The notes: generated from the sequence alone by a model not told the origin. A stretch of 42,136 bases of DNA from Deltaproteobacteria bacterium (GCA_030595125.1 JAUVDV010000049.1:1-42136), one strand, 5' to 3'. Shown: positions 17,241 through 38,454, counted from the first letter of the stretch. Numbers and translations: made by a program.

Positions 17241-18176
17241 TCAGGACACGGCCGCCGATTTCTTCTTAAAATAGGGCCAGAGGTAGGCGCAGATCACTAC
17301 GATGGCGGCGGCGATGATCTGGCTGGTGGAAAGTCCCAATACGGCCCCCCGATCGTCACGTCTTACAATTTCAATCGCGAATCGCGCGAGGGCGTACATA
17401 ACCATGGTCACCACGAAGACCTGCCCGTCGAAGCGCTTGTTCGGCCGGACGATGAAGTAGGCGAACGCGGCGATTACGAGGGCTGCGAGCGATTCGTAGA
17501 CCTGCGTCGGATGGACCGGCAACGATTCAAGGCGATAGGAATCGAGGAGGCCTTCTTGCCACTGGTGACGTGACGCCGCCGAACCGCCCGGGAAGATAAC
17601 GGCCAGGGGCGAGTCGCTCCTCGCGCCGAAGCAGCAACCTGCGAGGAGGCAGCCCATCCTGCCCCAGACCAGACCAAACGAGATCGTCCATCCGCCCATG
17701 TCGCACATCCTGCCCACCGACCAGCCCTGCTTCCGGATGAAGTACACGCTGAAAAGCGCCGCGGCGATGAGGCCGCCGTAGTACGCGAACCCGCTGCCGC
17801 TGAGCCAGGCCAGGCAGTTGGACTTTGCCGGGTGGCACACGCCGGCTGCGGCGTCCCATATTCCCGCAAGCGCGGAGCACTCCCTGGCGTCCACGAGCCA
17901 GTCCACCTTTGAGGGATCCAGGCAGACATTGACGTAGTCCATGAAGTGCCCGTCGGCGATGATGTGGAGGATCTTGGACCCCACCATGCCCCACAAGACC
18001 ATCCAGATCCCGAAGTCGATCATGCGCCCCTTGTTCATTCCGTGACCGCCCGCCCACCTGTACGCCAGGAAGATGGCCAGGATGAACCCCAGGGACAGCA
18101 TGGTGAAATACGGCGGAAGATAGAAGTTATCGATGCCCTCTATCCCGGTGGAGAATTCAAGCAGGCGTGGGTTCAT
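17241..18176 (-). CDS. lgt: Prolipoprotein diacylglyceryl transferase Lgt
   Basis: Lgt transfers diacylglycerol from phosphatidylglycerol to the lipobox Cys of prolipoproteins in the inner membrane. The protein has 311 residues and about seven membrane segments. Signatures are GMVGSKILHII, FAYYGGLIAA, LVWGRMGCLLAGCCFG and LPVHPTQVYES. A periplasmic loop of about 45 residues between the first two (CLDP...ARECSAL...GVCHPAKSNCLAWL) carries four Cys and is longer than in E. coli; I believe similar loops occur in other deltaproteobacterial Lgt proteins. It follows the 18183 gene by 6 bp in an rnc - secreted protein - lgt operon. Many lipoprotein substrates are encoded in this window. Confidence 0.96.
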   Translation of the reverse strand: MNPRLLEFSTGIEGIDNFYLPPYFTMLSLGFILAIFLAYRWAGGHGMNKGRMIDFGIWMVLWGMVGSKILHIIADGHFMDYVNVCLDPSKVDWLVDARECSALAGIWDAAAGVCHPAKSNCLAWLSGSGFAYYGGLIAAALFSVYFIRKQGWSVGRMCDMGGWTISFGLVWGRMGCLLAGCCFGARSDSPLAVIFPGGSAASRHQWQEGLLDSYRLESLPVHPTQVYESLAALVIAAFAYFIVRPNKRFDGQVFVVTMVMYALARFAIEIVRRDDRGAVLGLSTSQIIAAAIVVICAYLWPYFKKKSAAVS

Positions 18177-24123: not shown

Positions 24124-24142
24124 TATATAAATGCTTTATATA
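24124..24142. promoter_or_regulatory. AT-rich palindrome upstream of the VWA lipoprotein array
   Basis: TATATAAA-TGC-TTTATATA is a perfect 8-bp inverted repeat with a 3-bp centre, 73 bp before the ATG of the first array gene. It lies in the AT-rich part of a divergent region (24016-24214), where a -10 element would be. It may be an operator, a promoter core, or both. Confidence 0.45.
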
Positions 24143-24203
24143 AATTATTATCGGAAGTTTACGCGCGGCCGTCGTCCAAATGAATGGTAGCAATTTCTTT
24201 TGT

Positions 24204-24208
24204 GGAGG
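24204..24208 (+). promoter_or_regulatory. Ribosome binding site deciding the start of array gene 1
   Basis: GGAGG six bases before the ATG at 24215. It favours this ATG over the in-frame GTG at 24200, and the ATG gives a clean lipoprotein signal peptide. Confidence 0.7.
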
Positions 24209-24214
24209 TGTGTG

Positions 24215-25261
24215 ATGAAGTATCTGGTGTTGATGTTTTCTATGTCATTGATCATATTTGGTTGCGAGGATCCCACGAATCCGCACGCTTCGAGTTCGGA
24301 CAGCGATTCGGACAGTGATTCCGACGGTGATACCGACACCGATACCGATGGTGACACTGACAGCGACACCGATTCGGACACCGACACGGGTACGGGTGAA
24401 GCAATCTGTGACGAATTCCAGTTCGAGATCGAGGCCGTGCCCGTGCGCATGGTGTGGTTGCTGGACATTTCGGGGTCAATGATCGGCCAGAAGATTGCCG
24501 ACGCAAAGGCCGCCATCAACAACATCCTCGGTATCTGGGGAGGGACGCAAATTGAATTCGGTTTCGATTATTATCCCTTCAATGCAACCAGCTACGACGT
24601 TAATTCGAACTGCCCCATTTCTCCGGCAACGGGCACGGAGACCGCCATCACCACCCTGGTAAACAGTCTCGCAGCTTACGGCGGCACACCGACATTCGAC
24701 GCCATGCAGAACTATTTGACCACCACTTACGCCACCGGATTCCCGGAGGCGGGAGTCGAGTCCTACCTGGTTGTCGTAACAGACGGTACCCCCAACACCG
24801 GAACGGCGGCCCAGTTCACCACCCTCACCAACGACCTGCTGACCAACCAGATCAAGACCGTCGCCATCGGCGTTGATTATACAGGGTCCACCCTTGGCGC
24901 CATCGCGGCGGCCGGCGGCATGCCGGCGCCCTACAATGTGCCGATCGTCGCTACCGACCTGACCACCTTGCAAAATGCGTTCGACGACATTGCGGGCGCA
25001 ATTATCAATTGCATTTACGACATTACCATCACCAATGATGTGGATTACGATTCGGTGAACTTCTTCTTCATCGACTCTATGGGAACTGAAACGGCCGTGC
25101 CCTACGATGAGGACTGCTCGTCCGGGTTTGGCTGGCACTGGATCGATGTGTTGACCCACGAGCAGATCGAATTCTGTTCCGACGCCTGCGACCTGCTTCA
25201 GGGGGGAGATGTGGAAGAAATCAGGGGCGAGTTCGGCTGCCCGCAAATCATTGTGGATTAG
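24215..25261 (+). CDS. VWA lipoprotein, array copy 1
   Basis: 348 residues. The lipoprotein signal ends SLIIFGC-EDP (Cys17). A DS/DT/DG linker of about 35 residues follows. The VWA domain has MIDAS DISGS (about 84-88), the threonine segment GGTPTFDAM and VVTDGTPN. The C-terminal module is VDYDSVNFFFIDS ... EDCSSGFGWHW ... EFCSDACDLLQGG ... GEFGCPQIIVD. It is probably anchored in the outer membrane and binds a protein ligand through a metal ion; the ligand is unknown. It is the first of four tandem paralogs and is closest to copy 2. In the third conserved Cys segment it has EFCSDAC where the others have EFCPDAC. Confidence 0.92.
   Translation: MKYLVLMFSMSLIIFGCEDPTNPHASSSDSDSDSDSDGDTDTDTDGDTDSDTDSDTDTGTGEAICDEFQFEIEAVPVRMVWLLDISGSMIGQKIADAKAAINNILGIWGGTQIEFGFDYYPFNATSYDVNSNCPISPATGTETAITTLVNSLAAYGGTPTFDAMQNYLTTTYATGFPEAGVESYLVVVTDGTPNTGTAAQFTTLTNDLLTNQIKTVAIGVDYTGSTLGAIAAAGGMPAPYNVPIVATDLTTLQNAFDDIAGAIINCIYDITITNDVDYDSVNFFFIDSMGTETAVPYDEDCSSGFGWHWIDVLTHEQIEFCSDACDLLQGGDVEEIRGEFGCPQIIVD
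24383..24465 (+). repeat. 83-bp exact repeat, copy A (within array copy 1)
   Basis: Identical base by base to 25452-25534, including third codon positions. It covers the linker end, the CDEF segment and the strand leading to the MIDAS Asp. Confidence 0.9.
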
Positions 25262-25271
25262 GAGGAAATCA

Positions 25272-26327
25272 ATGAGATATTTACTGCTTACTTTTCTGGC
25301 AATAACGCTTGTCTTCGCCGCCGGTTGTGAGGATGCCAAGAATCCGCACGCTTCGAGTTCGGACAGCGACTCCGACAGCGATACCGACGGCGACACCGAC
25401 ACCGACACCGATGGTGACACTGACAGCGACACCGATTCGGACACCGATACCGACACGGGTACGGGTGAAGCAATCTGTGACGAATTCCAGTTCGAGATCG
25501 AGGCCGTGCCCGTGCGCATGGTGTGGTTGCTGGATATCTCGGGATCCATGTCAGGCCAGAAGATCATCGACGCGAAGGCCGCCGTCAACAACATCCTCGG
25601 CATCTGGGGAGGGACGCAGATTGAATTCGGTTTCGATTACTACCCCAACAATGCCAGCAGCGGAGTCAACACGGCCTGTCCCATTTCTCCGGCAACAGGT
25701 ACGGAGACCGCCATCACAACCATGGTAAACGGGCTCTCGGCCGGCGGCGGCACGCCGACGTTCGAGGCCATGACCAACTACACAAATGTCGGATACGCCA
25801 CCGGCTTCCCGGAGGCGGGCGTCGAATCCTACATGGTTCTCGTAACCGATGGTAACCCCAATAACGGAACGCCGGCCGACTACACCGCCCTCACCGGCAC
25901 CCTGCTGGCGAACCAGATCAAGACCGTCGCCATCGGTGTTGATTATTCCGGTCTCACCCTGGGCGCCATCGCGGCGGCCGGTGGTATGCCGGCGCCTTAC
26001 AATGTACCGATTGTGGCCACCGACCTGACCACCTTGCAAAACGCGTTCGACGATATCGCGGGCATGATCATCAATTGCATCTACGACATTACCATCACCA
26101 ACGATGTGGATTTTGATTCGGTAAACTTCTTCTTCATCGACTCGATGGGAGTCGAGACGGTCGTGCCTTACGATGCGGACTGCTCGACCGGGTTCGCCTG
26201 GCGCTGGATCGACGAGTTGACACACGAACAGATCGAATTCTGCCCGGACGCTTGCGACCTGCTCCAGGGTGGAGATGTAGAAGAAATAAAGGGCGAGTTC
26301 GGCTGCCCGCAGGTCGTTCCAGACTAG
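25272..26327 (+). CDS. VWA lipoprotein, array copy 2
   Basis: 351 residues from the ATG at 25272, preceded by GGAGGAAATCA. The signal ends LVFAAGC-EDA (Cys19) and the DT/DS linker is slightly longer than in copy 1. The VWA domain has DISGS, GGTPTFEAM and VTDGNPN. The C-terminal Cys module ends CPDACDLLQGG...GEFGCPQVVPD. VWA core and linker are almost the same as copy 1, including an 83-bp stretch identical in DNA. It starts 10 bp after the stop of copy 1; the stop codon runs into the Shine-Dalgarno (TAGGAGG). The frame is open further upstream inside copy 1, but that extension is not real. Confidence 0.92.
   Translation: MRYLLLTFLAITLVFAAGCEDAKNPHASSSDSDSDSDTDGDTDTDTDGDTDSDTDSDTDTDTGTGEAICDEFQFEIEAVPVRMVWLLDISGSMSGQKIIDAKAAVNNILGIWGGTQIEFGFDYYPNNASSGVNTACPISPATGTETAITTMVNGLSAGGGTPTFEAMTNYTNVGYATGFPEAGVESYMVLVTDGNPNNGTPADYTALTGTLLANQIKTVAIGVDYSGLTLGAIAAAGGMPAPYNVPIVATDLTTLQNAFDDIAGMIINCIYDITITNDVDFDSVNFFFIDSMGVETVVPYDADCSTGFAWRWIDELTHEQIEFCPDACDLLQGGDVEEIKGEFGCPQVVPD
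25452..25534 (+). repeat. 83-bp exact repeat, copy B (within array copy 2)
   Basis: Identical to 24383-24465. It indicates a recent duplication or gene conversion between array copies 1 and 2. Confidence 0.9.
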
Positions 26328-26337
26328 GAGAAGACCA

Positions 26338-27444
26338 ATGAAACATCTATTGCTTGTTTTTCTGGCAACAACGCTCATTTTTGCAGTCGGTTGCGAGCCG
26401 GGCTCGAGTCCGAGTCCTTCGGGTTCGGACAGCGACTCCGACGGCGATTCGGATTCCGACACGGATTCGGACGGCGACAGCGACACGGATTCCGACACGG
26501 ACTCCGACACGGGTGAAGCGATCTGCGATGAGCTGGACTTCCAGATCGAAGGAATCCCGGTGGCCATGGTGATCCTGCTCGACAGATCCGGTTCCATGTC
26601 CGGCTCCAAGTGGACGCAGGCCAAGGCCGCCATCGAGAACATAGTCAACAGCTGGGAAACCCAGCTCGAATTCGGTTTCGACGTCTTCCCGGACGGCAGC
26701 ACCTGTGGAGGGATGACCGATCGCTGCGGGACGCTGAACCCTGTTGCGCAGGACTGCGCTCCTCTGAACGCGACCAATATCATCACTTCGATGAACAGCT
26801 ACAGTGCGACCGGCGGATGGACGCCGTTATACTGCGCCATGGCCAACTTCCAGGATCCGACCACCTACGGCGCCGGACAGTGTGTCGGAACCAATATCAA
26901 CTCGTACATTGTGGTGGTTTCCGACGGCGAGGACACCTGCTCCACCGCGTGTAACACTTCGAGCTGCGAGGGTAGCGGCGTGAGCGCCGCCCAGCTCGGA
27001 ACCCTGTCGGCGACTCTGTTTACGGGAGGGATCACCAGCATCGCCATCGGATTCGGCACCGGAGCCCCGGTGGCGCAGCTCCAGGCCATCGCCGAAAACG
27101 GGGGCCTCGGCGTCACCGACGGCTACTTCTCGGCCACTGACGGTCCGGCCCTTCAGGCTGCCCTCAACAACATCGCTTCCTCGGTCATTTCGTGCGTCTA
27201 TGACATCACAATTACCAACGAGGTTGATTACGATTCGGTGAACTTCTTCTTCATCGATTCGTCAGGCATCGAGACGGTTGTGCCCTACGACGAGGACTGC
27301 TCGTCCGGGTTTGGCTGGCACTGGGTCGATGAGTCGACCCATGCGCAGATCGAATTCTGCCCCGACGCTTGCGACCTTCTCCAGGGTGGAAATGTCGATG
27401 AGATCAAGGGCGAGTTCGGCTGTCCGCAGATCATTGTGGATTAG
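26338..27444 (+). CDS. VWA lipoprotein, array copy 3
   Basis: 368 residues. The signal ends LIFAVGC-EPG (Cys19), then a Pro/Ser stretch and a DS/DG/DT linker. The VWA domain has DRSGS, the threonine segment GGWTPLYCAM and VVSDGEDTC. It is clearly diverged from copies 1 and 2 and carries extra Cys (CGGMTDRCG, CSTACNTSSC) that probably form local disulfides. The C-terminal module (VDYDSVNFFFIDSSG ... EDCSSGFGWHW ... EFCPDACDLL ... GEFGCPQIIVD) is again nearly the same. GGAGAAGACCA precedes the ATG, 10 bp after the copy 2 stop. Signal and linker match copy 4 best. Confidence 0.92.
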   Translation: MKHLLLVFLATTLIFAVGCEPGSSPSPSGSDSDSDGDSDSDTDSDGDSDTDSDTDSDTGEAICDELDFQIEGIPVAMVILLDRSGSMSGSKWTQAKAAIENIVNSWETQLEFGFDVFPDGSTCGGMTDRCGTLNPVAQDCAPLNATNIITSMNSYSATGGWTPLYCAMANFQDPTTYGAGQCVGTNINSYIVVVSDGEDTCSTACNTSSCEGSGVSAAQLGTLSATLFTGGITSIAIGFGTGAPVAQLQAIAENGGLGVTDGYFSATDGPALQAALNNIASSVISCVYDITITNEVDYDSVNFFFIDSSGIETVVPYDEDCSSGFGWHWVDESTHAQIEFCPDACDLLQGGNVDEIKGEFGCPQIIVD

Positions 27445-27454
27445 GAGAAAATCA

Positions 27455-28543
27455 ATGAAGCATCTACTGCTTGCTTTCCTGGCAACAACGCTCATTTTTG
27501 CAGTCGGTTGTGAGCCGGGCTCGGATGCCAGTTCTTCGGGTTCGGACAGCGACTCCGACGGCGATTCGGATTCTGACGCGGATTCGGATGCCGACAGCGA
27601 CACGGATTCCGACACGGACTCTGACTCGGATACCGGCGAAGCGATCTGCGACGAACTCGAGTTCGACATCGATCATACCCCGGTAGCCCTGATGCTACTT
27701 CAGGACGTCTCGGGCTCCATGTTTCCGAGCAACTGGAACCAGGCCCTGCCGGCCCTCAACAACGTCATCAATGCCTGGACCGGCTCGCAGATTCAATTCG
27801 GTCTGGACTACTTCCCGGACGGCAGCGATATTGACTCCACAGGTTGGAACTGTGGTTACACCAACCCGGTTCGACAGGACTGCGGCATCGGGACCGAAGC
27901 CGCGATTCTCAACGACTTGAACACTTTTGCGGATCCCAACGGAATGACGCCCCTCGCGTGCGGGCTCACCAATTTCCTGAACACAGCGTATTCCAACGGC
28001 TGCCTCAATTCCGCAATTGATTCATACGTCGCCGTGATTTCCGACGGTGGCGACACGTGCAGCTCCTGCTCCGGTTACAGCGGAACAGCAACTAGCATGG
28101 GCAACCTGGCGACGGCTCTCAACGCTCAGGGAACCAAAGTCTTTGTGATCGGGTTCAACTATTCCAGCACCGTTCTGGACGCCATCGCGGCCAACGGCGG
28201 CGTGCCCGCACCCTACAACGTGCCCCTCGATGCATCGGACACCACCACCCTCCAGGCTGCGCTAAACGATATCGTAGGCGCTGTTGTCAATTGCATTTAC
28301 GACATCGACATTACAAACGATGTGGACTACGACTCGGTGAACTTCTTCTTCATCGACTCATTGGGAAATGAAACGCCCGTGCCTTACGACGAGGACTGCT
28401 CGTCCGGGTTCGGCTGGCACTGGATCGACGTGTCGACCCACGAGCAGATCGAATTCTGCCCCGACGCCTGCGACCTGCTCCAGGGGGGAGATGTTGAAGA
28501 AATCAGGGGCGAATTCGGTTGCCCTCAGATAACAGTCGATTAG
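27455..28543 (+). CDS. VWA lipoprotein, array copy 4
   Basis: 362 residues from the ATG at 27455, preceded by GGAGAAAATCA and 10 bp after the copy 3 stop. The signal ends LIFAVGC-EPG (Cys19), almost the same as copy 3, followed by a DS/DA/DT linker. The VWA domain has DVSGS, NGMTPLACGL and VISDGGDTC, with an extra CSSC. It differs from all three other cores, while the C-terminal module (VDYDSVNFFFIDSLG ... EDCSSGFGWHW ... CPDACDLLQGG ... GEFGCPQITVD) is almost that of copy 1. The frame is open upstream inside copy 3; that part is not used. Confidence 0.92.
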   Translation: MKHLLLAFLATTLIFAVGCEPGSDASSSGSDSDSDGDSDSDADSDADSDTDSDTDSDSDTGEAICDELEFDIDHTPVALMLLQDVSGSMFPSNWNQALPALNNVINAWTGSQIQFGLDYFPDGSDIDSTGWNCGYTNPVRQDCGIGTEAAILNDLNTFADPNGMTPLACGLTNFLNTAYSNGCLNSAIDSYVAVISDGGDTCSSCSGYSGTATSMGNLATALNAQGTKVFVIGFNYSSTVLDAIAANGGVPAPYNVPLDASDTTTLQAALNDIVGAVVNCIYDIDITNDVDYDSVNFFFIDSLGNETPVPYDEDCSSGFGWHWIDVSTHEQIEFCPDACDLLQGGDVEEIRGEFGCPQITVD

Positions 28544-28593
28544 CCTGTCTTTAACACGCGGGGCGTATGGGTTCAGTTTTTAGTGGGGAATAA

Positions 28594-30552
28594 ATGAAAA
28601 TGAAACACTTGTTGGTTTTGCTATTCGTTTGCTCGATGAGCTTTGGGGGAGTTGCTTGTTCGAAGAGTCACGGCAACGACGATCCGGACGGCGGAGACGC
28701 GTCGACGGACACCGATACTGACACGGATACGGATACGGATACCGACACGGATACAGGGGAGGAGTGGTGTCCGGAGCTGGAGACTTCCTGTGAGGCGCCC
28801 GATGCGCTGGATGTGTGCGGCGACGATACGCTGAATGAGCCGAGGCTGATCTTTCCGTTGTCGGGAAGGCACATCAGGGACCGTCGGCCACGTATCATCT
28901 GGGAGGAGGCGGTCGGCGCGACGCAATACCGCCTGGAGATAGCGCTGGACCGCGCGTTCACCGACGTGGTGTACCGATCTGCCGACTACCAGCCGCTGGG
29001 AACGGATCGGTTCGAACATATTGTGACCTGCGACCTCGACTGTGGGGTGCACTTCTTCCGCGTCAAGTCGGTGACTTCACCCGAATGCGAGACGGGCGCT
29101 TCGTCCTACACCTGGGAGATGTTCGTCGGCATGGCCCCCGGCGACCTGGATAGGGACGGCGTACCGGACATCATGTACTGGAAGCTCATCGAACCGGCAG
29201 GGGAGATGCAGCCCTACCTGGTTCAAGGGTGGGCGTTCTTCGACCTGGACGAGAAAGGCGGACAGATCGCCGAGGCGGAGAAGGTCGTGGAGTTTGAGGT
29301 GGAGGGGAACACAATCGTGTTTAAAGGCTCGGCGTACCTGGGAGATGTAAATGCTGACGGCTCTGCAGATGTCAGTGTAGGAGTTCTTGCTGAAGATGCC
29401 CCCTATGAATTCGAAACCGCAGTAATAGAAACGTATGTGTTTAGCCAATTGCGCTCGGGGCCGTTGCAAGGAAAGGACGATGCGATTCGGTTGTTTCAAG
29501 GAGATGTCGGGCAAATATATAATATTTATCCCCTAAATAGATATTCCGATTTCAATGGCGATGGGTTTTCAGATATGGCCATTTCGTTTTACGAGGACTA
29601 TGGGGATCCGGGATTCACAGATACTTTACTAGTATATTATGGGGCATCGGAAGAAGATGTGGTTTCGGACATGTCATCCGCCGACGTGGTTGTACCGTGC
29701 CCTATCGGATGCGACTCGGACAATAGCTTCGGTCAGGTTGTTCGCCAAGTCGACGTAAACGGAGACGGTTTTTCGGACATAACAACTCGCTTGAACGATT
29801 ACGATATTGGAATCCCCGATGCGGGGGCAGACAACTCGGTTGTAGTTTTCGGGTCGGCGGATCCAGGAAATACCGTCGATATTCTTTCTTCCTCGGTGAT
29901 AATTGCATCCGACGCTTCTTTAAAATCGTTGTTTTCATGGGAGCTATTTTATAGCTCGTCAAATAACACAGTTCAATTAATGGGTGACGTCGATTTCGAC
30001 GGATACCCGGAGCTTGGTAGATTCATTGGCGCGATCGACACCGGCCAGTCACCGTTGCTCGATACCGGCGGGTGGGGGATTCTGGGTGATTTGCCGGGGC
30101 CCGGCCAATACCTGATCTCCGAAATGATAGACACCGTCATTGTCGCGAATTTCGAGACACATACAGACCTGATGGATACCGAGCAACTTTACACCATAAT
30201 CATGCCCGGCGACATATATGGAGATGGGATTGACGATTTTATCATCGAAACTTCGATGGCCGATTCCGGCAGTCCGGTTTACCCGGGCAGGTATTTCTAT
30301 TTTGAAGGACAGAGGGATTGGGATGACTTCATTCTACTGTCTACCATCGCCGAAAATGAGGTGATAAATTCGTCAAATTCCATTTATTGGTTATCCACTG
30401 ACATTGACGGTGACGGTATTGCCGATTTCATTCATATCGTTTCAGAGGAGATGTGGGCGATTACGCTATCCTCTTCTGGAGAAGACGTTGAACTGCATTT
30501 CGATTGGACGGGATCCGCTGGCAGTGCTGCAGCGATCCCCGAGATTTACTGA
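28594..30552 (+). CDS. Lipoprotein with DT linker and FG-GAP/VCBS-type repeats
   Basis: 652 residues. The lipobox is GGVAC-SKS (Cys22), followed by a short DT linker. A fibronectin-III-like segment comes next (PRLIFPLSGRHI ... AVGATQYRLEIALDRAF). Then at least seven Asp-rich calcium-type motifs appear at FG-GAP spacing: DLDRDGVPD, DVNADGSAD, DFNGDGFSD, DVNGDGFSD, DVDFDGYPE, DIYGDGIDD and DIDGDGIAD. These suggest a calcium-stabilised beta-propeller on the cell surface. The gene lies 50 bp behind the VWA array and 41 bp before the metalloprotease gene. From about 29340 the DNA becomes distinctly richer in A/T than the first 700 bp of the gene. Confidence 0.9.
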   Translation: MKMKHLLVLLFVCSMSFGGVACSKSHGNDDPDGGDASTDTDTDTDTDTDTDTDTGEEWCPELETSCEAPDALDVCGDDTLNEPRLIFPLSGRHIRDRRPRIIWEEAVGATQYRLEIALDRAFTDVVYRSADYQPLGTDRFEHIVTCDLDCGVHFFRVKSVTSPECETGASSYTWEMFVGMAPGDLDRDGVPDIMYWKLIEPAGEMQPYLVQGWAFFDLDEKGGQIAEAEKVVEFEVEGNTIVFKGSAYLGDVNADGSADVSVGVLAEDAPYEFETAVIETYVFSQLRSGPLQGKDDAIRLFQGDVGQIYNIYPLNRYSDFNGDGFSDMAISFYEDYGDPGFTDTLLVYYGASEEDVVSDMSSADVVVPCPIGCDSDNSFGQVVRQVDVNGDGFSDITTRLNDYDIGIPDAGADNSVVVFGSADPGNTVDILSSSVIIASDASLKSLFSWELFYSSSNNTVQLMGDVDFDGYPELGRFIGAIDTGQSPLLDTGGWGILGDLPGPGQYLISEMIDTVIVANFETHTDLMDTEQLYTIIMPGDIYGDGIDDFIIETSMADSGSPVYPGRYFYFEGQRDWDDFILLSTIAENEVINSSNSIYWLSTDIDGDGIADFIHIVSEEMWAITLSSSGEDVELHFDWTGSAGSAAAIPEIY

Positions 30553-30593
30553 GTTGTGAAGTTAAAGACAAAACCGAGAAAAGGGGGATTTCA

Positions 30594-33500
30594 ATGAGAA
30601 AGTTGAGTGTTTTGTTTATCGGATTTTCACTGACGGTGACTATGATGGTTTCGGCGGATCCGTTTCCCTTCGCTCCGTTCCCTCCGGCGCCTGACGGCGC
30701 GTTCGCCGTGACCGTTGACGACGCGGCGGTTTCCCTCTTGACGGCTCAGGGAACAAGCGATCCGTTCCTGGGAACAAGCGATCCGTTCGTCGACGCGATG
30801 GACAGTCTTCTCACAACGGATCCCGTAGCGGCCCTGCCCGCGAGCGTCCCCTGCGAGCCGGGCCTGGTCTATTGGGAGAGTCGGAATGCGCTTGGCAGGT
30901 TGCTGAAATGGACGGCCTCGGACCTGCGGGGAACAAAGTATCGCGCCCCCTGGTTCCAGGCTTTTCCGTGGACCAAGTCCTTTCCGGAGGCCGGGGAGGT
31001 GGCCGGTGCGAAGTACCGTTACAACTCGATGGGCACCGTGGGGCTCGTGAAATCCACTTCCCCGTGGCCACTTCAGTACAACTGGGGGCCACTGCCGACC
31101 GATGAAGCAGCCTGCGTCGTAATAGCCCGCGGTTTTCTGCGACTCTGGGGAGATCTGATAATGCTAAACGGTCGCATGCAAGAGCTGGTTGTAGATCGCG
31201 TGACGATCGAGCCCGATGGCGAGTGGTCCGTCGTATTCGGACAGGAGTACCAAGACCTGAAGGTTCTCGGAGCAAGTGTTATGATCAACGGCGACGAGTT
31301 CGGCGACGTCTTCACCATGCAGAGTAACTACGTGCCGAACCTCGCCGTGGATGTCGTTCCAACCTACGGAACCGACGCGCTCGGCCGCATACTGGCGGGG
31401 AGCGGAAATCCACACATCGAGAACGGCTTCGAGTACATTAAAACACCGGAGCTGACGGTCGCCCACACGGCGAGCGATCCGTGCGCGGGAACTCTGCTTT
31501 GGAGTTTCGGCATTTTTTCGTGGGCTGGTATCGGCCCGGAGTTTTCATACGCTGTTGACGCTCATCGGGGCGAGGTGTACGGGTACAACCGCCTCGATTC
31601 ACAAGATGTAGAAGAATACCAGTTGTACAATTTCAGGGGCAACCACGAATTCCGGACAGACCTTGTACAAACGGCAACAATAGACGCTTGCGGGCCGGGA
31701 GGCGCGTTTGACTGTCACTGGTTTTCTACTCCTGAAACGAATAAGGCCAACGTTGTGAGGCAGAGCTTGTGGGATCCCGGCTTGATAGTAACCCCCCTTA
31801 TACAGCCTCCAGCTTCTGATTATTGGAGTTCAAGAAAATGCTGGTCATACACACCCGGTTGCAACACCGGAGGATTTCCTTTTGACGATCCTCAAGACCA
31901 CAATGGTGACATATTGTCCGCCACCGGCAACCACTACTTGTGCTACGACACCACCGATCCGTACCTGTCCAGCCCGTACGACTGCTGGATAGAAAACGAT
32001 CCTGTGCACAATCCATGGAGAATTTACACCGTGGGTCCGGGCGCGAATAACGAGTACAACGCGGGCAAGTGGCTGGTGGACGATTTGGATGACTTCGTGG
32101 CGTACATCAATCATATGGAAACAGAGCTTTCAAATGCGGGCGTAACTTCAGGCACCCTCACTGGCGACATTAGTTTCGATTTCCCTGTATACAGCGTCCT
32201 GGCCAGCGAGCCGAGGGATACCGCGATATTCGACGGGATAGCATTTCCCTGGGACGACGAAAGACACTACCCTTTCTTTTGGACGGCATTCAGCGGGTAC
32301 AGCAAGGGAAGCAGGTGGGGGAACCAGCGCATACTTATCTCACCAAGCCGTTACAACCGTTCCTTCGACGGTGGAAACCAGTTCGCTGCGGACGACACTG
32401 TGTATCACGAGATCGGCCACATGTTGCAGCAGGGTTTTCCGGAATCCAATTACTATCGAGGTTACGATCCCCTCACTCCATCAGTCGTAGCGCCTCAGAG
32501 ATTCGATCATAAGACCTGCGTGATGTGGAAAGGCATCCACCACGAGTCGATGCCGGATCTTTACGCCGCGCTCATAGAGTACTACAGGTTTTCCACCGAC
32601 CGCGTGATAATCGAGAACGGCAATACCAACTCTTTCATAGACATCGATGGCGACGAGTACAAGCCGGACTGGAATTACGGAGAAGGCCTGGTGACAGGAC
32701 CTGCGCGCGATATGCAACGCCCCGACCACGCGGACTTGGACAGGTTCCCCGAATCTCTGAACGATTTCAAATTCAGACGAACATCCGATGCCACACTCGA
32801 TTACCGCGACGCGGAAATACACGGCGCCTCCGGGCTTATAGGCAAGTTCAACTTCCTGTTCGGAAACGACATCTGCGACAAGGACAATCGTTGCGGCGAA
32901 AACGCCAACGAACTGGTCAACGATCCCTGTACCTGCGGGGCAGCAGACGCCAATACACCCGTCTGCTATGATGATCCCCTCAATCCGAGATACCAAAGAG
33001 CCAACGATAGATTTCACACAGTAATGCCGCCCTCTTCCTGCCAATTAAACGGTTCGACAGAAACACCCGGAGATACCACCAGCGAGGGCTTTCAGCAGTA
33101 CCATTGTGGTGTCGAGGTAACCAGCCTGGACAGGACGCATGAAGGAGGCGAGAACGGCCTGGAACGCCTGGGCAGGCTCTACTTCCGCATGTTATTCGAC
33201 CCCGCCGCGATAACCTACGAAGGCGACGAGTTTCTCCCATACGCATTCATGGACGCCGTGGAAGACGCGTTGATGAATGACACAGGGTGGTCATTCCCCG
33301 ATCCCTTCGCACCCCTGATACCGTTCTATCGCGCTCGTGACGCGGTGGGGTTCTGGACTGAAATCGGCAATTACTTCCCGATACAGCAAACCATAGCAGA
33401 TGAGGGCCTCTCGGCCGCGTTCGTCAACTGGAAACCTGGCGCCGCCTACCCGATGAACACTGAATGGATATTCGGGTTCGAACCGTCGAACCACACTATT

Positions 33501-34619
33501 TATCTTGCTTTACGACTCTGCTGGAACACGGACGCCGATGGCGACGGCGACATGGACTACTGCCTGGCCAACCCGAACTGGTACTATTACGTTGTCGAGG
33601 GTCCGGCGATGCCCGGAGTGAATTGGGCTAAAAGTGTACCATCCGTCGATGTGAATGATGAGGGAGATCCCAACAACGACTCGAACCACGGTCTCTGGAT
33701 AGTGTACAACGCCACAATTCTAGCCGCGACAACCAATGCGATTTGCAAACGGCAGGTTCCGATCTCCCCCAATACCGGCACGGCCACGCCTCGCGATTGC
33801 AATACCGACTTCGTGAGCGACCTCAGGCCGGGAGCCGGGCACTACCTGGATCCGAACGCATCAGAAACCAGGGAGGTTATAGTATTTGCCGATGCCAGCG
33901 ACTCGGGAAAACTAAAGAGCTTTGAATGGGGACAGGTGACCGGAGACGAGTTGACCATACCGCAAGCAAACATTGCGTGTGGCAATTCCTCAATATGGCG
34001 GCCCGAAGTGGTAAATCACGATGGTTATGTTTGGGTATTCTGGACCGCAGAAAGTGGTCTGGATCTTTGCTACTCGCGTCTCCGACACGACGATCCGAAC
34101 CCACATTGGGAAGACCCGCACCGGATTCCTTTCGAGGGAGATTTCGATACATGCGGCACACAGAGTCGCCGGCTTAATGGGGCGCCGGAAGCCGAAACGA
34201 GAAACGGAATAATCAATCTCGTGGTACGGGACGTAGAAACAGCCAATACACCCCCGAACGATCCATGGGTATGGATGATTCAACTCTCTGATCAAGATCA
34301 AAGCGGTATCTTTGAAGAGTGCAGGGGGGGCGTCGAGGAATGCGCAGGAGACTGCCGGGCGGACTGCTCTGAGTGGAACAACTACGAAGAGCGGAGCAAC
34401 TGGGTGCCTCACACTGAGTTCTATGTCAATCCGGATTCACCCGAAGTGGGCGCCCTGGCGAGTACAGAGCACCTGCTGAACATGAAGAACGCGCTCTCTG
34501 GCAATCGTCAGGATTACACATTCTTCTATAATCCGAAGGGTTACACTGACCCCCCAATCGAGAAGGCGTCCGGTTTCCTATGGTCGGATTTGTCCGTATG
34601 GGTAAGGGAATCCTGGTAG
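30594..34619 (+). CDS. Large secreted HEIGH-type zinc metalloprotease
   Basis: 1341 residues from the ATG at 30594, preceded by AAGGGGGATTTCA. A signal peptide (MRKLSVLFIGFSLTVTMMVSA) is followed by a propeptide-like region resembling FTP/PepSY domains (EWSVVFGQEYQDLKVLGASV ... DAHRGEVYGYNRL). The zinc site HEIGH is at 605-609 and a likely third ligand is Glu651 in HHESMPDLYAAL, as in gluzincins of the M4/M36 type. Asp-rich and Cys-rich stretches follow (NDICDKDNRCGENANE ... CTCGAADANTP). The C-terminal third has beta-propeller-like segments (NHDGYVWVFWTAESGLDLCYS). No C-terminal sorting signal was seen. It is the last gene of the array cluster. Exact peptidase family and substrate are unknown. 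Confidence 0.85.
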   Translation: MRKLSVLFIGFSLTVTMMVSADPFPFAPFPPAPDGAFAVTVDDAAVSLLTAQGTSDPFLGTSDPFVDAMDSLLTTDPVAALPASVPCEPGLVYWESRNALGRLLKWTASDLRGTKYRAPWFQAFPWTKSFPEAGEVAGAKYRYNSMGTVGLVKSTSPWPLQYNWGPLPTDEAACVVIARGFLRLWGDLIMLNGRMQELVVDRVTIEPDGEWSVVFGQEYQDLKVLGASVMINGDEFGDVFTMQSNYVPNLAVDVVPTYGTDALGRILAGSGNPHIENGFEYIKTPELTVAHTASDPCAGTLLWSFGIFSWAGIGPEFSYAVDAHRGEVYGYNRLDSQDVEEYQLYNFRGNHEFRTDLVQTATIDACGPGGAFDCHWFSTPETNKANVVRQSLWDPGLIVTPLIQPPASDYWSSRKCWSYTPGCNTGGFPFDDPQDHNGDILSATGNHYLCYDTTDPYLSSPYDCWIENDPVHNPWRIYTVGPGANNEYNAGKWLVDDLDDFVAYINHMETELSNAGVTSGTLTGDISFDFPVYSVLASEPRDTAIFDGIAFPWDDERHYPFFWTAFSGYSKGSRWGNQRILISPSRYNRSFDGGNQFAADDTVYHEIGHMLQQGFPESNYYRGYDPLTPSVVAPQRFDHKTCVMWKGIHHESMPDLYAALIEYYRFSTDRVIIENGNTNSFIDIDGDEYKPDWNYGEGLVTGPARDMQRPDHADLDRFPESLNDFKFRRTSDATLDYRDAEIHGASGLIGKFNFLFGNDICDKDNRCGENANELVNDPCTCGAADANTPVCYDDPLNPRYQRANDRFHTVMPPSSCQLNGSTETPGDTTSEGFQQYHCGVEVTSLDRTHEGGENGLERLGRLYFRMLFDPAAITYEGDEFLPYAFMDAVEDALMNDTGWSFPDPFAPLIPFYRARDAVGFWTEIGNYFPIQQTIADEGLSAAFVNWKPGAAYPMNTEWIFGFEPSNHTIYLALRLCWNTDADGDGDMDYCLANPNWYYYVVEGPAMPGVNWAKSVPSVDVNDEGDPNNDSNHGLWIVYNATILAATTNAICKRQVPISPNTGTATPRDCNTDFVSDLRPGAGHYLDPNASETREVIVFADASDSGKLKSFEWGQVTGDELTIPQANIACGNSSIWRPEVVNHDGYVWVFWTAESGLDLCYSRLRHDDPNPHWEDPHRIPFEGDFDTCGTQSRRLNGAPEAETRNGIINLVVRDVETANTPPNDPWVWMIQLSDQDQSGIFEECRGGVEECAGDCRADCSEWNNYEERSNWVPHTEFYVNPDSPEVGALASTEHLLNMKNALSGNRQDYTFFYNPKGYTDPPIEKASGFLWSDLSVWVRESW
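30750..30788 (+). repeat. Short tandem duplication in the metalloprotease propeptide region
   Basis: An 18-bp block (30750-30767) recurs exactly at 30771-30788 with a 21-bp period, giving GTSDPFL-GTSDPFV in the protein. It is in-frame and recent-looking. Confidence 0.85.
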
Positions 34620-34676
34620 TAGGATCGAATAACTTTGCCGTGTTTCGAACAACCAGATCACGAGAGCCGCAAATAG

Positions 34677-35930
34677 ATGAAAACCCACATCAAGGGCGGT
34701 CGAATCATCGACCCGTCGCGAGGAATGGATGAACCCGGCGACCTGTACATCCACGAAGGGAAATTCGTGGACCGTCACCCCGGGGAAGGATCCACGATCG
34801 TGGATGCCGAGGGTCTGTGGGTGGTGCCCGGTCTCATCGATGCCCACGTTCACCTGCGGGAGCCCGGCGGGGAGCACAAGGAAACCGTGGAGACCGGTCT
34901 CGCCGCTGCGGCCGCCGGCGGGTTCACCGCAGTGCTGCCAATGCCCAACACGATTCCCGCCAACGACAACGTGAAGCTCACACGCTGGCTCGTCGATCGC
35001 GCCAGGGACCTTGGCGGAACCAGAATTTTTCCCGTGCCCGCGATTACCATGGGCCGAAAGGGACGAGATCTCGTCCCGATGGCCGATCTGGTCGAGGCGG
35101 GCGCAGTGGCTTTCTCCGACGACGGTTCGGGGTTGGCGGACGACTCCGTTATGGAGCGCGCCCTCGTTACGGCTGCGGGGCTCGCAGTGCCCATCTCCCA
35201 GCATTCGGAGTTCTCCGACCTGAGCGCGGGAGGAGTTGTTCACGATGGTACGGTATCCCGATTTCTGGGCCTCCCGGGCTGGCCGGCCGAGGCCGAGGAG
35301 CGCATGGTGGAGCGGGATATCGCGCTGGCGAAAAAGACCGGTGGAAGGCTCCATGTCAGTCATATCTCGACCATCGGCGCCATCGATCTGGTGCGCCGTG
35401 CCAGGGCCTCCGGGTTGCCCGTGACTGCCGAGGTTACACCTCACCACCTGCACCTCACAGACGAGCTACTGAGGGATGGTTCGACCGACGCCAAGGTGAA
35501 CCCCCCGCTGCGTCCGGCAAGGCACATGGAGGCGTGCAGGGCGGCCCTCGCGGACGGGACCATCGACATCGTCGCCACGGATCACGCCCCTCACACAGCG
35601 AAGGACAAGGAAGGCGGCTTTATCGGGGCGGCTTTCGGGATGATCGGCCTGGAGATCGCCGTGCCCATGCTGCTGTTACTCGTACAAGAAGGAGCATTAA
35701 CCGCTGAGCGGATGATCGCCGCCATGAGCACGAAACCCGCCGAGATCTTCGGTCTTCCCGGCGGAACGCTTCGTCCGGGTGCGCCGGCGGACCTGACGCT
35801 CATAGATCCGGACCTGCCCCACGAGATTGATCCCTCCCGTTTTTTCACCAAGTGCGCGAACACTCCTTTTGCCGGGTGGAAAGTTTCGGGAAGAGCGGTT
35901 AGTATATATGTCGGCGGGCATCGACATTGA
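34677..35930 (+). CDS. pyrC: Dihydroorotase (class I)
   Basis: 417 residues. Dihydroorotase cyclises carbamoyl-aspartate in pyrimidine synthesis. Metal-site motifs are DAHVHLREPG (His57, His59), PMPNTIPANDN, QHSEFSDLSAGG, HVSHIST, EVTPHHLHL and ATDHAPH (catalytic Asp about 301). NPPLRP and the C-terminal GTLRPGAPADLTLIDPD complete the amidohydrolase layout. The ribosome site is weak. It stands 57 bp after the metalloprotease gene. pyrB is not next to it, unlike many class I dihydroorotase loci. Allantoinase or hydantoinase is less likely given the REPG and NPPLR motifs. Confidence 0.95.
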   Translation: MKTHIKGGRIIDPSRGMDEPGDLYIHEGKFVDRHPGEGSTIVDAEGLWVVPGLIDAHVHLREPGGEHKETVETGLAAAAAGGFTAVLPMPNTIPANDNVKLTRWLVDRARDLGGTRIFPVPAITMGRKGRDLVPMADLVEAGAVAFSDDGSGLADDSVMERALVTAAGLAVPISQHSEFSDLSAGGVVHDGTVSRFLGLPGWPAEAEERMVERDIALAKKTGGRLHVSHISTIGAIDLVRRARASGLPVTAEVTPHHLHLTDELLRDGSTDAKVNPPLRPARHMEACRAALADGTIDIVATDHAPHTAKDKEGGFIGAAFGMIGLEIAVPMLLLLVQEGALTAERMIAAMSTKPAEIFGLPGGTLRPGAPADLTLIDPDLPHEIDPSRFFTKCANTPFAGWKVSGRAVSIYVGGHRH

Positions 35931-36021
35931 TCCTTTTAGTGATTATGTGAGTTTTTGAGAACGTTTTTGAAAATGAACATTGAAATAGTTAACTTTTCGG
36001 GGAACGGCAACTAAGCATACG

Positions 36022-36043
36022 CGACTGAACGTCATGTCAGTCG
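36022..36043 (+). promoter_or_regulatory. Hairpin just upstream of the ribosome site of the fifth array-type lipoprotein
   Basis: CGACTGA - 8-nt loop - TCAGTCG forms a perfect 7-bp stem ending 22 bp before the ATG at 36065 and about 9 bp before AAAGGAG. It may stabilise or control the mRNA, or be an operator in DNA. Confidence 0.35.
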
Positions 36044-36064
36044 GCATGTAAAAGGAGCGACATC

Positions 36065-37126
36065 ATGAATATCTCCAGGCAAATCTTTTTATTGCTGGCG
36101 TCTTTTACGCTGGCATTGGGCGTCTTCGGCTGCGAGGCCGTTGAGCACCTCGACGAGGGCAACAGTGACGCGGACACCGACACCGACACCGATACGGATA
36201 CAGATACAGATACAGATACGGACTCGGACTCGGATTCGGACAGCGACTCCGATGCCGACGGCGACGGCGGCGATACCATCTGCGACGAGCAGGATTTCGA
36301 GATCGACATTACACCGGTGCGGCTGGTCTTCCTGCTGGACATCTCCGGATCCATGGGCACCACACCGCTCCAGCAGGCCAAGGACGCCATCAACAATATT
36401 CTGAGCATCTGGGCGGGCACGCAGATCGAGTTCGGTTTTGATCATTACCCGATCTACAGTGACAGTTGCGGCATCAATACCACCATCCCCATCGCACCCG
36501 CTCCCGGCACGGAGACATCCATCACCACAATGCTCAACGGATTGACCGCCACCGGCGCTACTCCGACGGAAGAGTCGATGATCAACTACCTCAGCTACGG
36601 ATACGCGGCCAATTTCCCGGAGTCGGGCGTTGAATCCTATCTGGTGCTCGTCACCGACGGTTCGCCCAACTGCTCAAGCGGAGACATCGCCTCGTTCTCC
36701 GCAACCACGGCCTCGTTGCTCGCAAACCAGATCAAGACCTTCGCCGTCGGCTTCAACTACACAAGCTCCTCTCTCAACGCGGTCGCTGCGGCGGGAGGGA
36801 TGCCGGCCCCCTACAACGTACCAATCCAGGTTACCGACTCGACGACAATGCAGAACGCTTTCAACGACATCGCGCAGATCGTCATCACATGCATCTTCGA
36901 CGTTCAGAGTCCGGACGCGACCGCAGATCCCGATAACGTGAACTTCTACTTCGACGGCGTGGTCCTTCCCATGAACGACGGCTGCGGCGGCTCCGGCGAG
37001 GGCTGGCAGTGGGTGGACGCGGCGCACACACAGGTGGAGTTCTGCCCGGTATCTTGCGACGACATCAAGGACGGCGATCCGCCGGACATCTCGGCCGCGT
37101 GGGGTTGCCCCACCGTCATCTCGTAG
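36065..37126 (+). CDS. VWA lipoprotein, dispersed fifth paralog
   Basis: 353 residues. The signal ends LGVFGC-EAV (Cys23), followed by a DT then DS linker of about 36 residues. The VWA domain has DISGS, GATPTEESM and VTDGSPN, and its core (IEFGFDHYPIYSDSCG ... PAPGTETSITTMLNGL) is close to array copies 1 and 2. The C-terminal module is a variant (PDNVNFYFDG ... DGCGGSGEGWQWVD ... EFCPVSCDDIKDG ... AAWGCPTVIS). GGAG ten bases before the ATG. It sits between pyrC and the pyrimidine phosphorylase, apart from the array, so it is probably a transposed or duplicated copy. Confidence 0.92.
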   Translation: MNISRQIFLLLASFTLALGVFGCEAVEHLDEGNSDADTDTDTDTDTDTDTDTDSDSDSDSDSDADGDGGDTICDEQDFEIDITPVRLVFLLDISGSMGTTPLQQAKDAINNILSIWAGTQIEFGFDHYPIYSDSCGINTTIPIAPAPGTETSITTMLNGLTATGATPTEESMINYLSYGYAANFPESGVESYLVLVTDGSPNCSSGDIASFSATTASLLANQIKTFAVGFNYTSSSLNAVAAAGGMPAPYNVPIQVTDSTTMQNAFNDIAQIVITCIFDVQSPDATADPDNVNFYFDGVVLPMNDGCGGSGEGWQWVDAAHTQVEFCPVSCDDIKDGDPPDISAAWGCPTVIS

Positions 37127-37149
37127 CACTTTCGCGATACCGAGAACGC

Positions 37150-38454
37150 ATGCACATCTCCCTTCCGAACATGATCCGACAAAAACGCGATGGAGGTCGG
37201 CTTGGAGAGGGCGAGATTCGCGAACTCATCGCCGCGTATACCGCCTCGAAAGTGCCCGACTACCAGATGGCGGCCATGCTGATGGCCGTGCTTTTCAATG
37301 GTCTCGACGAGGAGGAGCTCTCGGTCTGGACCGATGCCATGCTCCACTCCGGCAGGGTGATGAGCCATGCGGGAGTACCGGGAATCAAGGTAGACAAGCA
37401 CTCCACAGGGGGTGTTGGAGACAAGATCTCCCTTTGCCTCGCGCCGGCCGTCGCCGCCCTGGGAGTTCCGGTTCCCATGGTCTCCGGTCGCGGTTTGGGC
37501 CATACGGGGGGAACCCTGGACAAGCTCGAGTCCATTCCGGGATTCGAGGTGAACCTCGCTGCTGACAGGGCCTGCCGGATGCTCGAGGAGTGCGGTCTCT
37601 TCCTCATCGGACAGACCGAGGATCTGGCACCCGCCGATCGCAAGCTCTACGCTTTGAGGGACGTAACCGGCACGGTGGAATCGATCCCGCTCATCGCTTC
37701 ATCGATCATGAGCAAGAAGCTGGCGGAGGGAATAGACGCGCTGGTCCTCGACGTGAAAGTCGGCGACGGAGCTTTCATGAGGGATCTGGAACAGGCCCGG
37801 ACGCTTGCTAAGACTCTCATCGGCATAGGCGAGGCGTCAGGCAAGAACGTCGTGGCCCTGATCACGGACATGACCGCCCCCATCGGGCGAACGGTGGGCA
37901 ACGCCCTCGAGGTGCGTGAGGCCATCGACGTCATGAAAGGGGGCGGCCCACCGGACACCGTCGAGTTGACCAGGGAGCTCGGCGCCCGAATGCTTCTCCT
38001 CGGGGAGGCGGTCGATGATCTCGACGCGGGCAAGGAGGCGATCGATCGGGTCCTGAGCGACGGAAGCGCCCTTGAGTTGTTCACGAGGGTGATCGAACTC
38101 CAGGGGGGCGATCCGGGCGTTTGCGCGGATCCGAACGGTCTCCCTGCGGCCCGAAATCGCGAAACCGTCGTTGCTCGCAGGCAGGGTTATGTCGCCCGGA
38201 TCCACCCGAGGATTGTGGCTGCGGCAGCCCTCGAGGTCGGTGCGGGACGCAAGGTCAAGGAAGACGACGTCGATCCGGCCACGGGGATCGAGCTTGCGGT
38301 ACGCCCCGGAGATCCGGTGGACGCGGGTCAACCCCTGGCGGTCTTGCATCACAATGACTCGGGCGCCACGGAGGCATTGAAAACCCTCGAAACGGCGTTC
38401 GAGATAGACGACGCGCCCCGAAAACCGGCAAGTCTGATCAGGGATCGAATCTGA
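37150..38454 (+). CDS. pdp: Pyrimidine-nucleoside / thymidine phosphorylase
   Basis: 434 residues from the ATG at 37150, the normal family length; ATG 37171 (MIRQKRDGG) is an alternative. The enzyme splits thymidine, uridine or deoxyuridine with phosphate to base and (deoxy)ribose 1-phosphate. Signatures are VDKHSTGGVGDK, VSGRGLGHTGGTLDKLESIPG, SSIMSKKLAEG, VLDVKVGDGAFM and a C-terminal PYNP domain (GYVARIHPR ... VKEDDVDPATGI). Sequence alone does not separate DeoA from Pdp. It starts 23 bp after the fifth VWA lipoprotein. Confidence 0.95.
   Translation: MHISLPNMIRQKRDGGRLGEGEIRELIAAYTASKVPDYQMAAMLMAVLFNGLDEEELSVWTDAMLHSGRVMSHAGVPGIKVDKHSTGGVGDKISLCLAPAVAALGVPVPMVSGRGLGHTGGTLDKLESIPGFEVNLAADRACRMLEECGLFLIGQTEDLAPADRKLYALRDVTGTVESIPLIASSIMSKKLAEGIDALVLDVKVGDGAFMRDLEQARTLAKTLIGIGEASGKNVVALITDMTAPIGRTVGNALEVREAIDVMKGGGPPDTVELTRELGARMLLLGEAVDDLDAGKEAIDRVLSDGSALELFTRVIELQGGDPGVCADPNGLPAARNRETVVARRQGYVARIHPRIVAAAALEVGAGRKVKEDDVDPATGIELAVRPGDPVDAGQPLAVLHHNDSGATEALKTLETAFEIDDAPRKPASLIRDRI

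What the first reader, a model, noticed from the sequence alone, without database searches (positions are those of the whole stretch)
24124..34619. Four-copy VWA lipoprotein array with FG-GAP lipoprotein and giant metalloprotease: a candidate undescribed surface system
Four tandem VWA lipoproteins with 10-bp gaps are followed closely by an FG-GAP lipoprotein and a 1341-residue HEIGH protease, all in one direction. Seen: gene order, MIDAS motifs, lipoboxes. Known: VWA domains bind protein ligands through metal, and FG-GAP propellers often act in adhesion. Inferred: one polycistron making a multi-ligand surface patch with its own processing or attacking protease, for adhesion or predation.
Basis: partly seen in the sequence, partly recalled or inferred. 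Interest (0 to 1): 0.75.

Follow-up and report, generated by a model that had tools for sequence, protein, structure and literature searches.

The report
VWA array plus inserted propeller-lipoprotein cassette
A cold-seep bacterium has a row of four related surface-binding lipoprotein genes into which a two-gene cassette (a propeller-shaped lipoprotein and a protease) was inserted; that cassette's lipoprotein is one of nine scattered copies whose anchor part stays constant while the propeller part varies and is swapped between copies.

Summary
The gene list is right, but the "one system" reading is not. Four VWA lipoprotein genes with 10-bp gaps, an FG-GAP lipoprotein and a 1341-aa HEIGH protein stand where stated; a fifth VWA paralogue lies beyond pyrC. 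The two halves have separate histories. In the congener G002 (cold-seep MAG CSMAG_2956) the array runs VWA-VWA-VWA-VWA-pyrC-VWA with nothing between VWA4 and pyrC, so the FG-GAP and protease genes sit on a 6,087-bp insert (28553-34639). The FG-GAP gene is one of nine dispersed copies in this genome; six of the nine sites are empty in at least one congener. Inserts show no transposase, terminal inverted repeats or target duplications. FG-GAP copies share an anchor and head (75-92% nt identity) and carry a variable propeller body (down to 40%). Head and body trees conflict strongly (AU p = 0.0007 and 1e-11), so bodies have been exchanged. VWA genes show the same design more weakly: constant ends, divergent MIDAS cores, core order rearranged between species. 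Intact proteases accompany few FG-GAP copies. Best reading: two diversified repertoires of surface-binding lipoproteins, juxtaposed in this species. Functions are inferred. Novelty: new variant of known kinds.

The parts
24215..25261 (+). VWA1 lipoprotein, 348 aa; orthologue in G001 (90% nt core)
25272..26327 (+). VWA2 lipoprotein, 351 aa; core orthologue is the first array gene of G002
26338..27444 (+). VWA3 lipoprotein, 368 aa; core orthologue is the fourth array gene of G002
27455..28543 (+). VWA4 lipoprotein, 362 aa; core orthologue is the third array gene of G002 (order differs from this genome)
28553..34639 (+). 6,087-bp insert carrying the FG-GAP and protease genes, absent from the same site in G002
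28594..30552 (+). FG-GAP lipoprotein, 652 aa, seven DxDxDG repeats
28594..29298 (+). Constant head of the FG-GAP lipoprotein: signal, S/T-D linker, head domain, first FG-GAP repeat (residues 1-235)
29299..30549 (+). Variable propeller body of the FG-GAP lipoprotein (residues 236-652), exchanged between copies
30594..34619 (+). HEXXH protein with an apparent Sec signal peptide, 1341 aa, candidate zinc metalloprotease with a weak FTP propeptide match
32406..32420 (+). HEIGH motif, residues 605-609; candidate third zinc ligand E651 in GIHHESMPDL, conserved in the G001 and G002 relatives
34677..35930 (+). Dihydroorotase-like gene (pyrC); follows VWA4 directly in G002
36065..37126 (+). Fifth VWA lipoprotein paralogue, conserved in G002 behind pyrC

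Best explanation
The stretch joins two independently evolving repertoires of surface-binding lipoproteins. Layer 1 is a genus-conserved tandem array of VWA lipoproteins beside pyrC: signal and lipid anchor, S/D/T linker, divergent MIDAS core, shared Cys-containing C-terminal module. Layer 2 is a dispersed cassette, an FG-GAP lipoprotein that was probably once regularly followed by a secreted HEXXH protein, inserted 9 bp behind the stop of VWA4. Shown: the insert, the empty sites in congeners, the constant head and variable propeller, the exchange of bodies between copies, and the lack of the upstream TATAAT-bearing stretch in this copy. Inferred: both protein families sit on the outer membrane; the MIDAS cores and propeller bodies bind different ligands while the constant parts anchor and present them, so the families diversify binding specificity by duplication and recombination; in this species the cassette is read through from the array; the protease is an accessory that is often lost.
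For: Empty site in G002: left homology ends at 28552, right resumes at 34640. Other FG-GAP sites of this genome empty in congeners: C111 and C73 in G001 and G002, C112 in G001, C70 and C113 in G002. C111 carries a second insert of similar size, 6,081 bp. Heads are 75-92% nt identical, bodies down to 40%, with a sharp step near residue 236. Tree conflict: W+C73+g1C504 is 100/100 for bodies and rejected for heads (p 0.0007); C113+C73+g2C164 is rejected for bodies (p 1.5e-11) although the C73 and C113 heads are 92% identical. At one syntenic site (C32 in G000, C183 in G001) flank and head are 86% identical and the bodies are of different types. dS differs between head and body of one gene pair: 0.51 against 1.22, 0.65 against 1.38. 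VWA cores are 50-54% nt identical between several array paralogues but 84-92% between orthologues; C-terminal modules are 78-90% identical between array paralogues. dN/dS is 0.05-0.48 wherever measurable, so both families are maintained as proteins.
Against: No binding, localisation or expression data. Homogenisation of the VWA C-terminal modules is suggested by identity and dS but not decided by tree tests (p 0.08-0.28). Both AlphaFold2 models are poor (pLDDT 44 and 26), so propeller and protease folds rest on sequence motifs. Only three genomes of the genus are held, all fragmented MAGs, and G001 contigs fall into two coverage classes (about 9x and 80x), so it may mix strains. Polarity of insertion is inferred.
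Confidence: 0.6

Rival explanations
1. One conserved functional operon: VWA patch, FG-GAP adhesin and protease act together, perhaps as an integrin-like propeller/VWA pair.
For: Same strand, short gaps, no excess of terminator-like sites. Integrin alpha propellers and beta VWA-type domains meet in integrins (established knowledge), and seven-repeat FG-GAP propellers occur in bacteria (PMC3192720).
Against: G002 has the array without the FG-GAP and protease genes; the other eight FG-GAP copies lie at other places with unrelated neighbours; the protease is missing or a remnant beside most FG-GAP copies.
Confidence: 0.12
2. Ordinary gene-family expansion: tandem and dispersed duplicates with constrained anchor domains and relaxed binding domains, with occasional recombination but no special diversification role.
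For: dN/dS well below 1 everywhere measurable; VWA C-terminal tree tests do not demand gene conversion; the genome has over a hundred other matches to the same signal and S/D/T linker.
Against: Six FG-GAP sites empty in close congeners and different bodies at a shared site imply turnover and exchange faster than simple duplication and divergence.
Confidence: 0.25
3. The FG-GAP/protease cassette is a mobile element moved in trans by a transposase elsewhere in the genome.
For: Presence/absence at syntenic sites; two inserts of nearly equal size (6,087 and 6,081 bp); in G002 a reading frame resembling a REP-associated transposase occupies the spot where G000 has the C112 insert.
Against: Insert ends differ from copy to copy (about 41-167 bp upstream, 20-1,208 bp downstream), with no clear target duplication and no inverted repeats at the ends.
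Confidence: 0.1

Closest known systems
CglB, VWA-domain surface lipoprotein adhesin of Myxococcus gliding motility (NCBIfam NF033757)
   Same: Lipoprotein with a VWA domain; CglB acts as a cell-surface adhesin (PMC12288465)
   Different: No hit over the family cut-off in 20 related genomes; VWA5 matches only 46 residues at E 2.2e-5; occurs here as a tandem array
Integrin-type seven-bladed FG-GAP beta-propellers of bacteria (PMC3192720)
   Same: Seven repeats with a calcium-type DxDxDG motif in each
   Different: Multi-copy family with a constant lipoprotein head and recombining propeller bodies; fold not confirmed by a confident model
TraA, polymorphic myxobacterial recognition receptor (PMC6372800, PMC12288465)
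   Same: Surface receptor whose variable domain sets specificity while the rest is conserved; an analogy of design only
   Different: TraA is a single locus varying between strains; here many paralogues vary within one genome, with unrelated domains
Thermolysin/fungalysin-type metalloproteases with FTP propeptide
   Same: HEXXH, a following conserved glutamate and a weak FTP match
   Different: FTP match is below the gathering score (16.3 against 21), no Pfam peptidase family matches, and 41 residues separate HEXXH from the candidate glutamate
vls-type antigenic variation by segmental recombination (PMC11499132, abstract)
   Same: Constant parts with a recombining variable part
   Different: No silent cassettes and no single expression site: the copies are dispersed, mostly full-length reading frames with their own start

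Membership tests
Pfam VWA (PF00092) | Score above gathering cut-off (23.8 bits) | tested here: met
   24.3-37 bits for VWA1-4, 41.1 for VWA5
Pfam VWA (PF00092) | MIDAS DxSxS motif | tested here: met
   DISGS, DISGS, DRSGS, DVSGS; VWA5 DISGS
CglB (NF033757) | Score over the curated cut-off (200 bits) | tested here: not met
   Best hit of the array and VWA5 is 23.7 bits; 0 of 20 genomes over cut-off
Bacterial integrin-type propeller | Seven FG-GAP repeats, each with a DxDxDG calcium motif | tested here: met
   Motifs at residues 184, 251, 319, 387, 465, 540, 603; FG-GAP family hits over gathering
Bacterial integrin-type propeller | Seven-bladed propeller fold | tested here: inconclusive
   Model pLDDT 44; best Foldseek matches are mostly propellers, integrin alpha chains among them, but from a low-confidence model
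Thermolysin/fungalysin metalloprotease (M4/M36) | HEXXH zinc motif | tested here: met
   HEIGH at 605-609; HELGH and HEFGH in relatives
Thermolysin/fungalysin metalloprotease (M4/M36) | FTP propeptide and peptidase domain over Pfam cut-offs | tested here: not met
   FTP 16.3 bits against 21; no peptidase family matched
Insertion sequence / transposon | Terminal inverted repeats, target-site duplication, transposase in the element | tested here: not met
   the insert codes only for the FG-GAP and HEXXH proteins
Insertion sequence / transposon | Presence/absence at syntenic sites | tested here: met
   Six FG-GAP sites, the window included, empty in at least one congener
vls-type antigenic variation | Silent cassettes and one expression site | tested here: not met
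   FG-GAP copies in G000 are full-length reading frames at dispersed sites
vls-type antigenic variation | Switching within a population | not testable with these tools
   Needs reads or isolates

The most novel reading that the evidence does not exclude
The FG-GAP copies form an actively recombining combinatorial receptor repertoire: a gene cassette that spreads to new intergenic sites without a transposase of its own, keeps a constant anchor/head, and swaps propeller bodies between sites, giving lineages different surface specificities.
Probability: 0.22. Interest if true: 0.75.

Novelty: new variant of a known kind. Interest (0 to 1): 0.5.

Why it matters
If the FG-GAP copies really exchange propeller bodies while spreading between sites, an uncultivated bacterium would be diversifying an integrin-like surface propeller in the way some pathogens diversify antigens, with no host or immune pressure evident. 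The filled and empty sites found here make the movement directly testable in cold-seep read data.

Tried and rejected
AlphaFold2 of the FG-GAP protein (6 rows, pLDDT 44) and of the HEXXH protein (2 rows, pLDDT 26) gave no usable folds; the Foldseek search of the former is reported only as weak support. Profile searches of the PDB with both families found nothing useful. The first head/body tree was spoiled by a frame-shifted row (g1C341) and was redone. Transposon ends, inverted repeats and target duplications were sought and not found. Assembly chimerism was considered for the head/body joins: the longest exact stretch shared between FG-GAP copies of one genome is 71 nt, shorter than the k-mer sizes (119, 127) that appear in the relatives' contig names; the assembler of the window's genome is unknown. 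Sigma-70-type and terminator scans were at chance level. The VWA-pyrC linkage was looked for in other genera of the family by comparing the contigs of VWA and pyrC hits; none coincided.

Full report
What is there. The window holds four VWA lipoprotein genes, VWA1 24215-25261, VWA2 25272-26327, VWA3 26338-27444 and VWA4 27455-28543, with 10-bp gaps, then an FG-GAP lipoprotein gene 28594-30552 and a 1341-codon gene 30594-34619 with HEIGH at residues 605-609. Each VWA passes Pfam's gathering score and has a DxSxS MIDAS motif. The window's genome is a 5.39-Mb assembly in 203 contigs. In the named collection of 84,980 species the FG-GAP head was found only in two 'Deltaproteobacteria bacterium' MAGs, CSMAG_220 and CSMAG_2956 (records of the window's own genome may be left out of that search). 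CSMAG is the prefix of a global cold-seep catalogue (PMC10491686).

The array. G002 contig C269 (L079) carries four VWA genes, pyrC and a VWA5 orthologue in that order, with pyrC about 40 bp behind the last array gene. G001 shows the M14 peptidase gene, the deoxyhypusine synthase-like gene, VWA1 and VWA2 before its contig ends. Cores pair as VWA3 with the fourth G002 gene and VWA4 with the third, 90-92% nt, while the cores of VWA3 and VWA4 are only 54% alike; their signal regions are 90% and their C-terminal modules 78% alike. The second G002 core has no close counterpart in the window. So the array has constant ends, divergent cores and a rearranged order. Homogenisation of the ends by gene conversion is suggested by dS (0.31 between two G002 paralogues against 0.44 and 0.71 between orthologues) but not decided by tree tests. 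Related VWA genes occur throughout the family and seldom outside it.

The insert. Against G002 the left homology stops at 28552 and the right resumes at 34640, so 6,087 bp holding the FG-GAP and protease genes are extra in the window. The corresponding junction in G001 lies at a contig end (W 34630) and is unresolved. Insertion rather than loss is favoured because most other FG-GAP copies share an upstream stretch of about 85-105 bp with a TATAAT, while this copy keeps only about 35 bp of it before array sequence begins.

A dispersed family. This genome has nine FG-GAP copies (window, C73, C32, C112, C70, C96, C113, C111, C43). Empty sites: C111 in G001 and G002, C73 in G001 and G002, C112 in G001, C70 and C113 in G002, the window in G002. 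Occupied in G001: C32 (by C183) and C43 (by C50). C96 is not resolved. Insert ends differ between copies, with 0 to about 30 nt of target lost, no clear duplication and no inverted repeats. How the copies spread is not known.

Constant head, variable body. Heads (residues 56-236) are 75-92% identical in nt across copies; bodies (245-460) range from 40 to 84%, with a sharp step near residue 236. Bodies of W, C73 and g1C504 form a 100/100 clade that heads reject (p 0.0007); C113, C73 and g2C164 are rejected as a body clade (p 1.5e-11) although the C73 and C113 heads are 92% alike. C32 in G000 and C183 in G001 occupy the same site with 86% identical flank and head and bodies of different types. 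The C73 copy also has a different signal-peptide region. Exact stretches shared between copies of one genome do not exceed 71 nt, which argues against assembly chimeras. Both parts are under purifying selection.

The protease. Relatives were found in the same genus only, among 59 related genomes. Full-length frames: window and G002 C212. G001 C50 is interrupted by a stop; C111 lacks the region between about residues 290 and 688, HEXXH included, and its frame is broken. Short N-terminal remnants follow the FG-GAP genes in C113, C504 and C341. A weak FTP propeptide match (16.3 bits, cut-off 21), HEXXH and a conserved E651 suggest a zinc metalloprotease; family membership is not shown.

How it most likely works. 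Inference from the domains: anchor and linker place the VWA and FG-GAP proteins on the outer membrane, the MIDAS cores and calcium-type propeller repeats bind ligands, and diversity in the binding part with a constant anchor gives a set of binding specificities. The closest named comparisons are CglB (cut-off not met), bacterial integrin-type propellers (seven repeats met, fold not confirmed) and, as an analogy of design only, TraA. Adjacency of the FG-GAP gene and the VWA array is best read as a chance insertion in this lineage.

Limits. Three fragmented MAGs, one of them perhaps mixed (two coverage classes); no expression, localisation or binding data; poor structure models.

Noticed in passing
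L112:4352-5905 (G002 C233): Where this genome has the C112 FG-GAP insert, G002 has about 1.5 kb with a reading frame that looks by eye like a REP-associated (Y1-type) transposase; the same intergenic spot took two different inserts. No family search was run on it.
   Followed up: partly
G000, genome-wide: About 150 matches to the VWA2 query in this genome, most to the signal plus S/D/T-rich linker alone: a very large set of lipoproteins with the same linker.
   Followed up: no
window 17241-18176 (-): Prolipoprotein diacylglyceryl transferase (Lgt) gene near the lipoprotein array.
   Followed up: no
window 34677-38454: VWA5 lies between a dihydroorotase-like gene and a pyrimidine nucleoside phosphorylase-like gene.
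   Followed up: no
L071:5605-8404 (-): Protease copy with the catalytic region missing and frame broken, beside an open FG-GAP frame.
   Followed up: yes
L065:4152-6113: FG-GAP copy whose signal-peptide region is unlike that of the other copies.
   Followed up: no
L089-L093 (CSMAG_220 and CSMAG_2956 contigs): CSMAG_220 contigs have about 9x or about 80x coverage, so the bin may mix strains.
   Followed up: no
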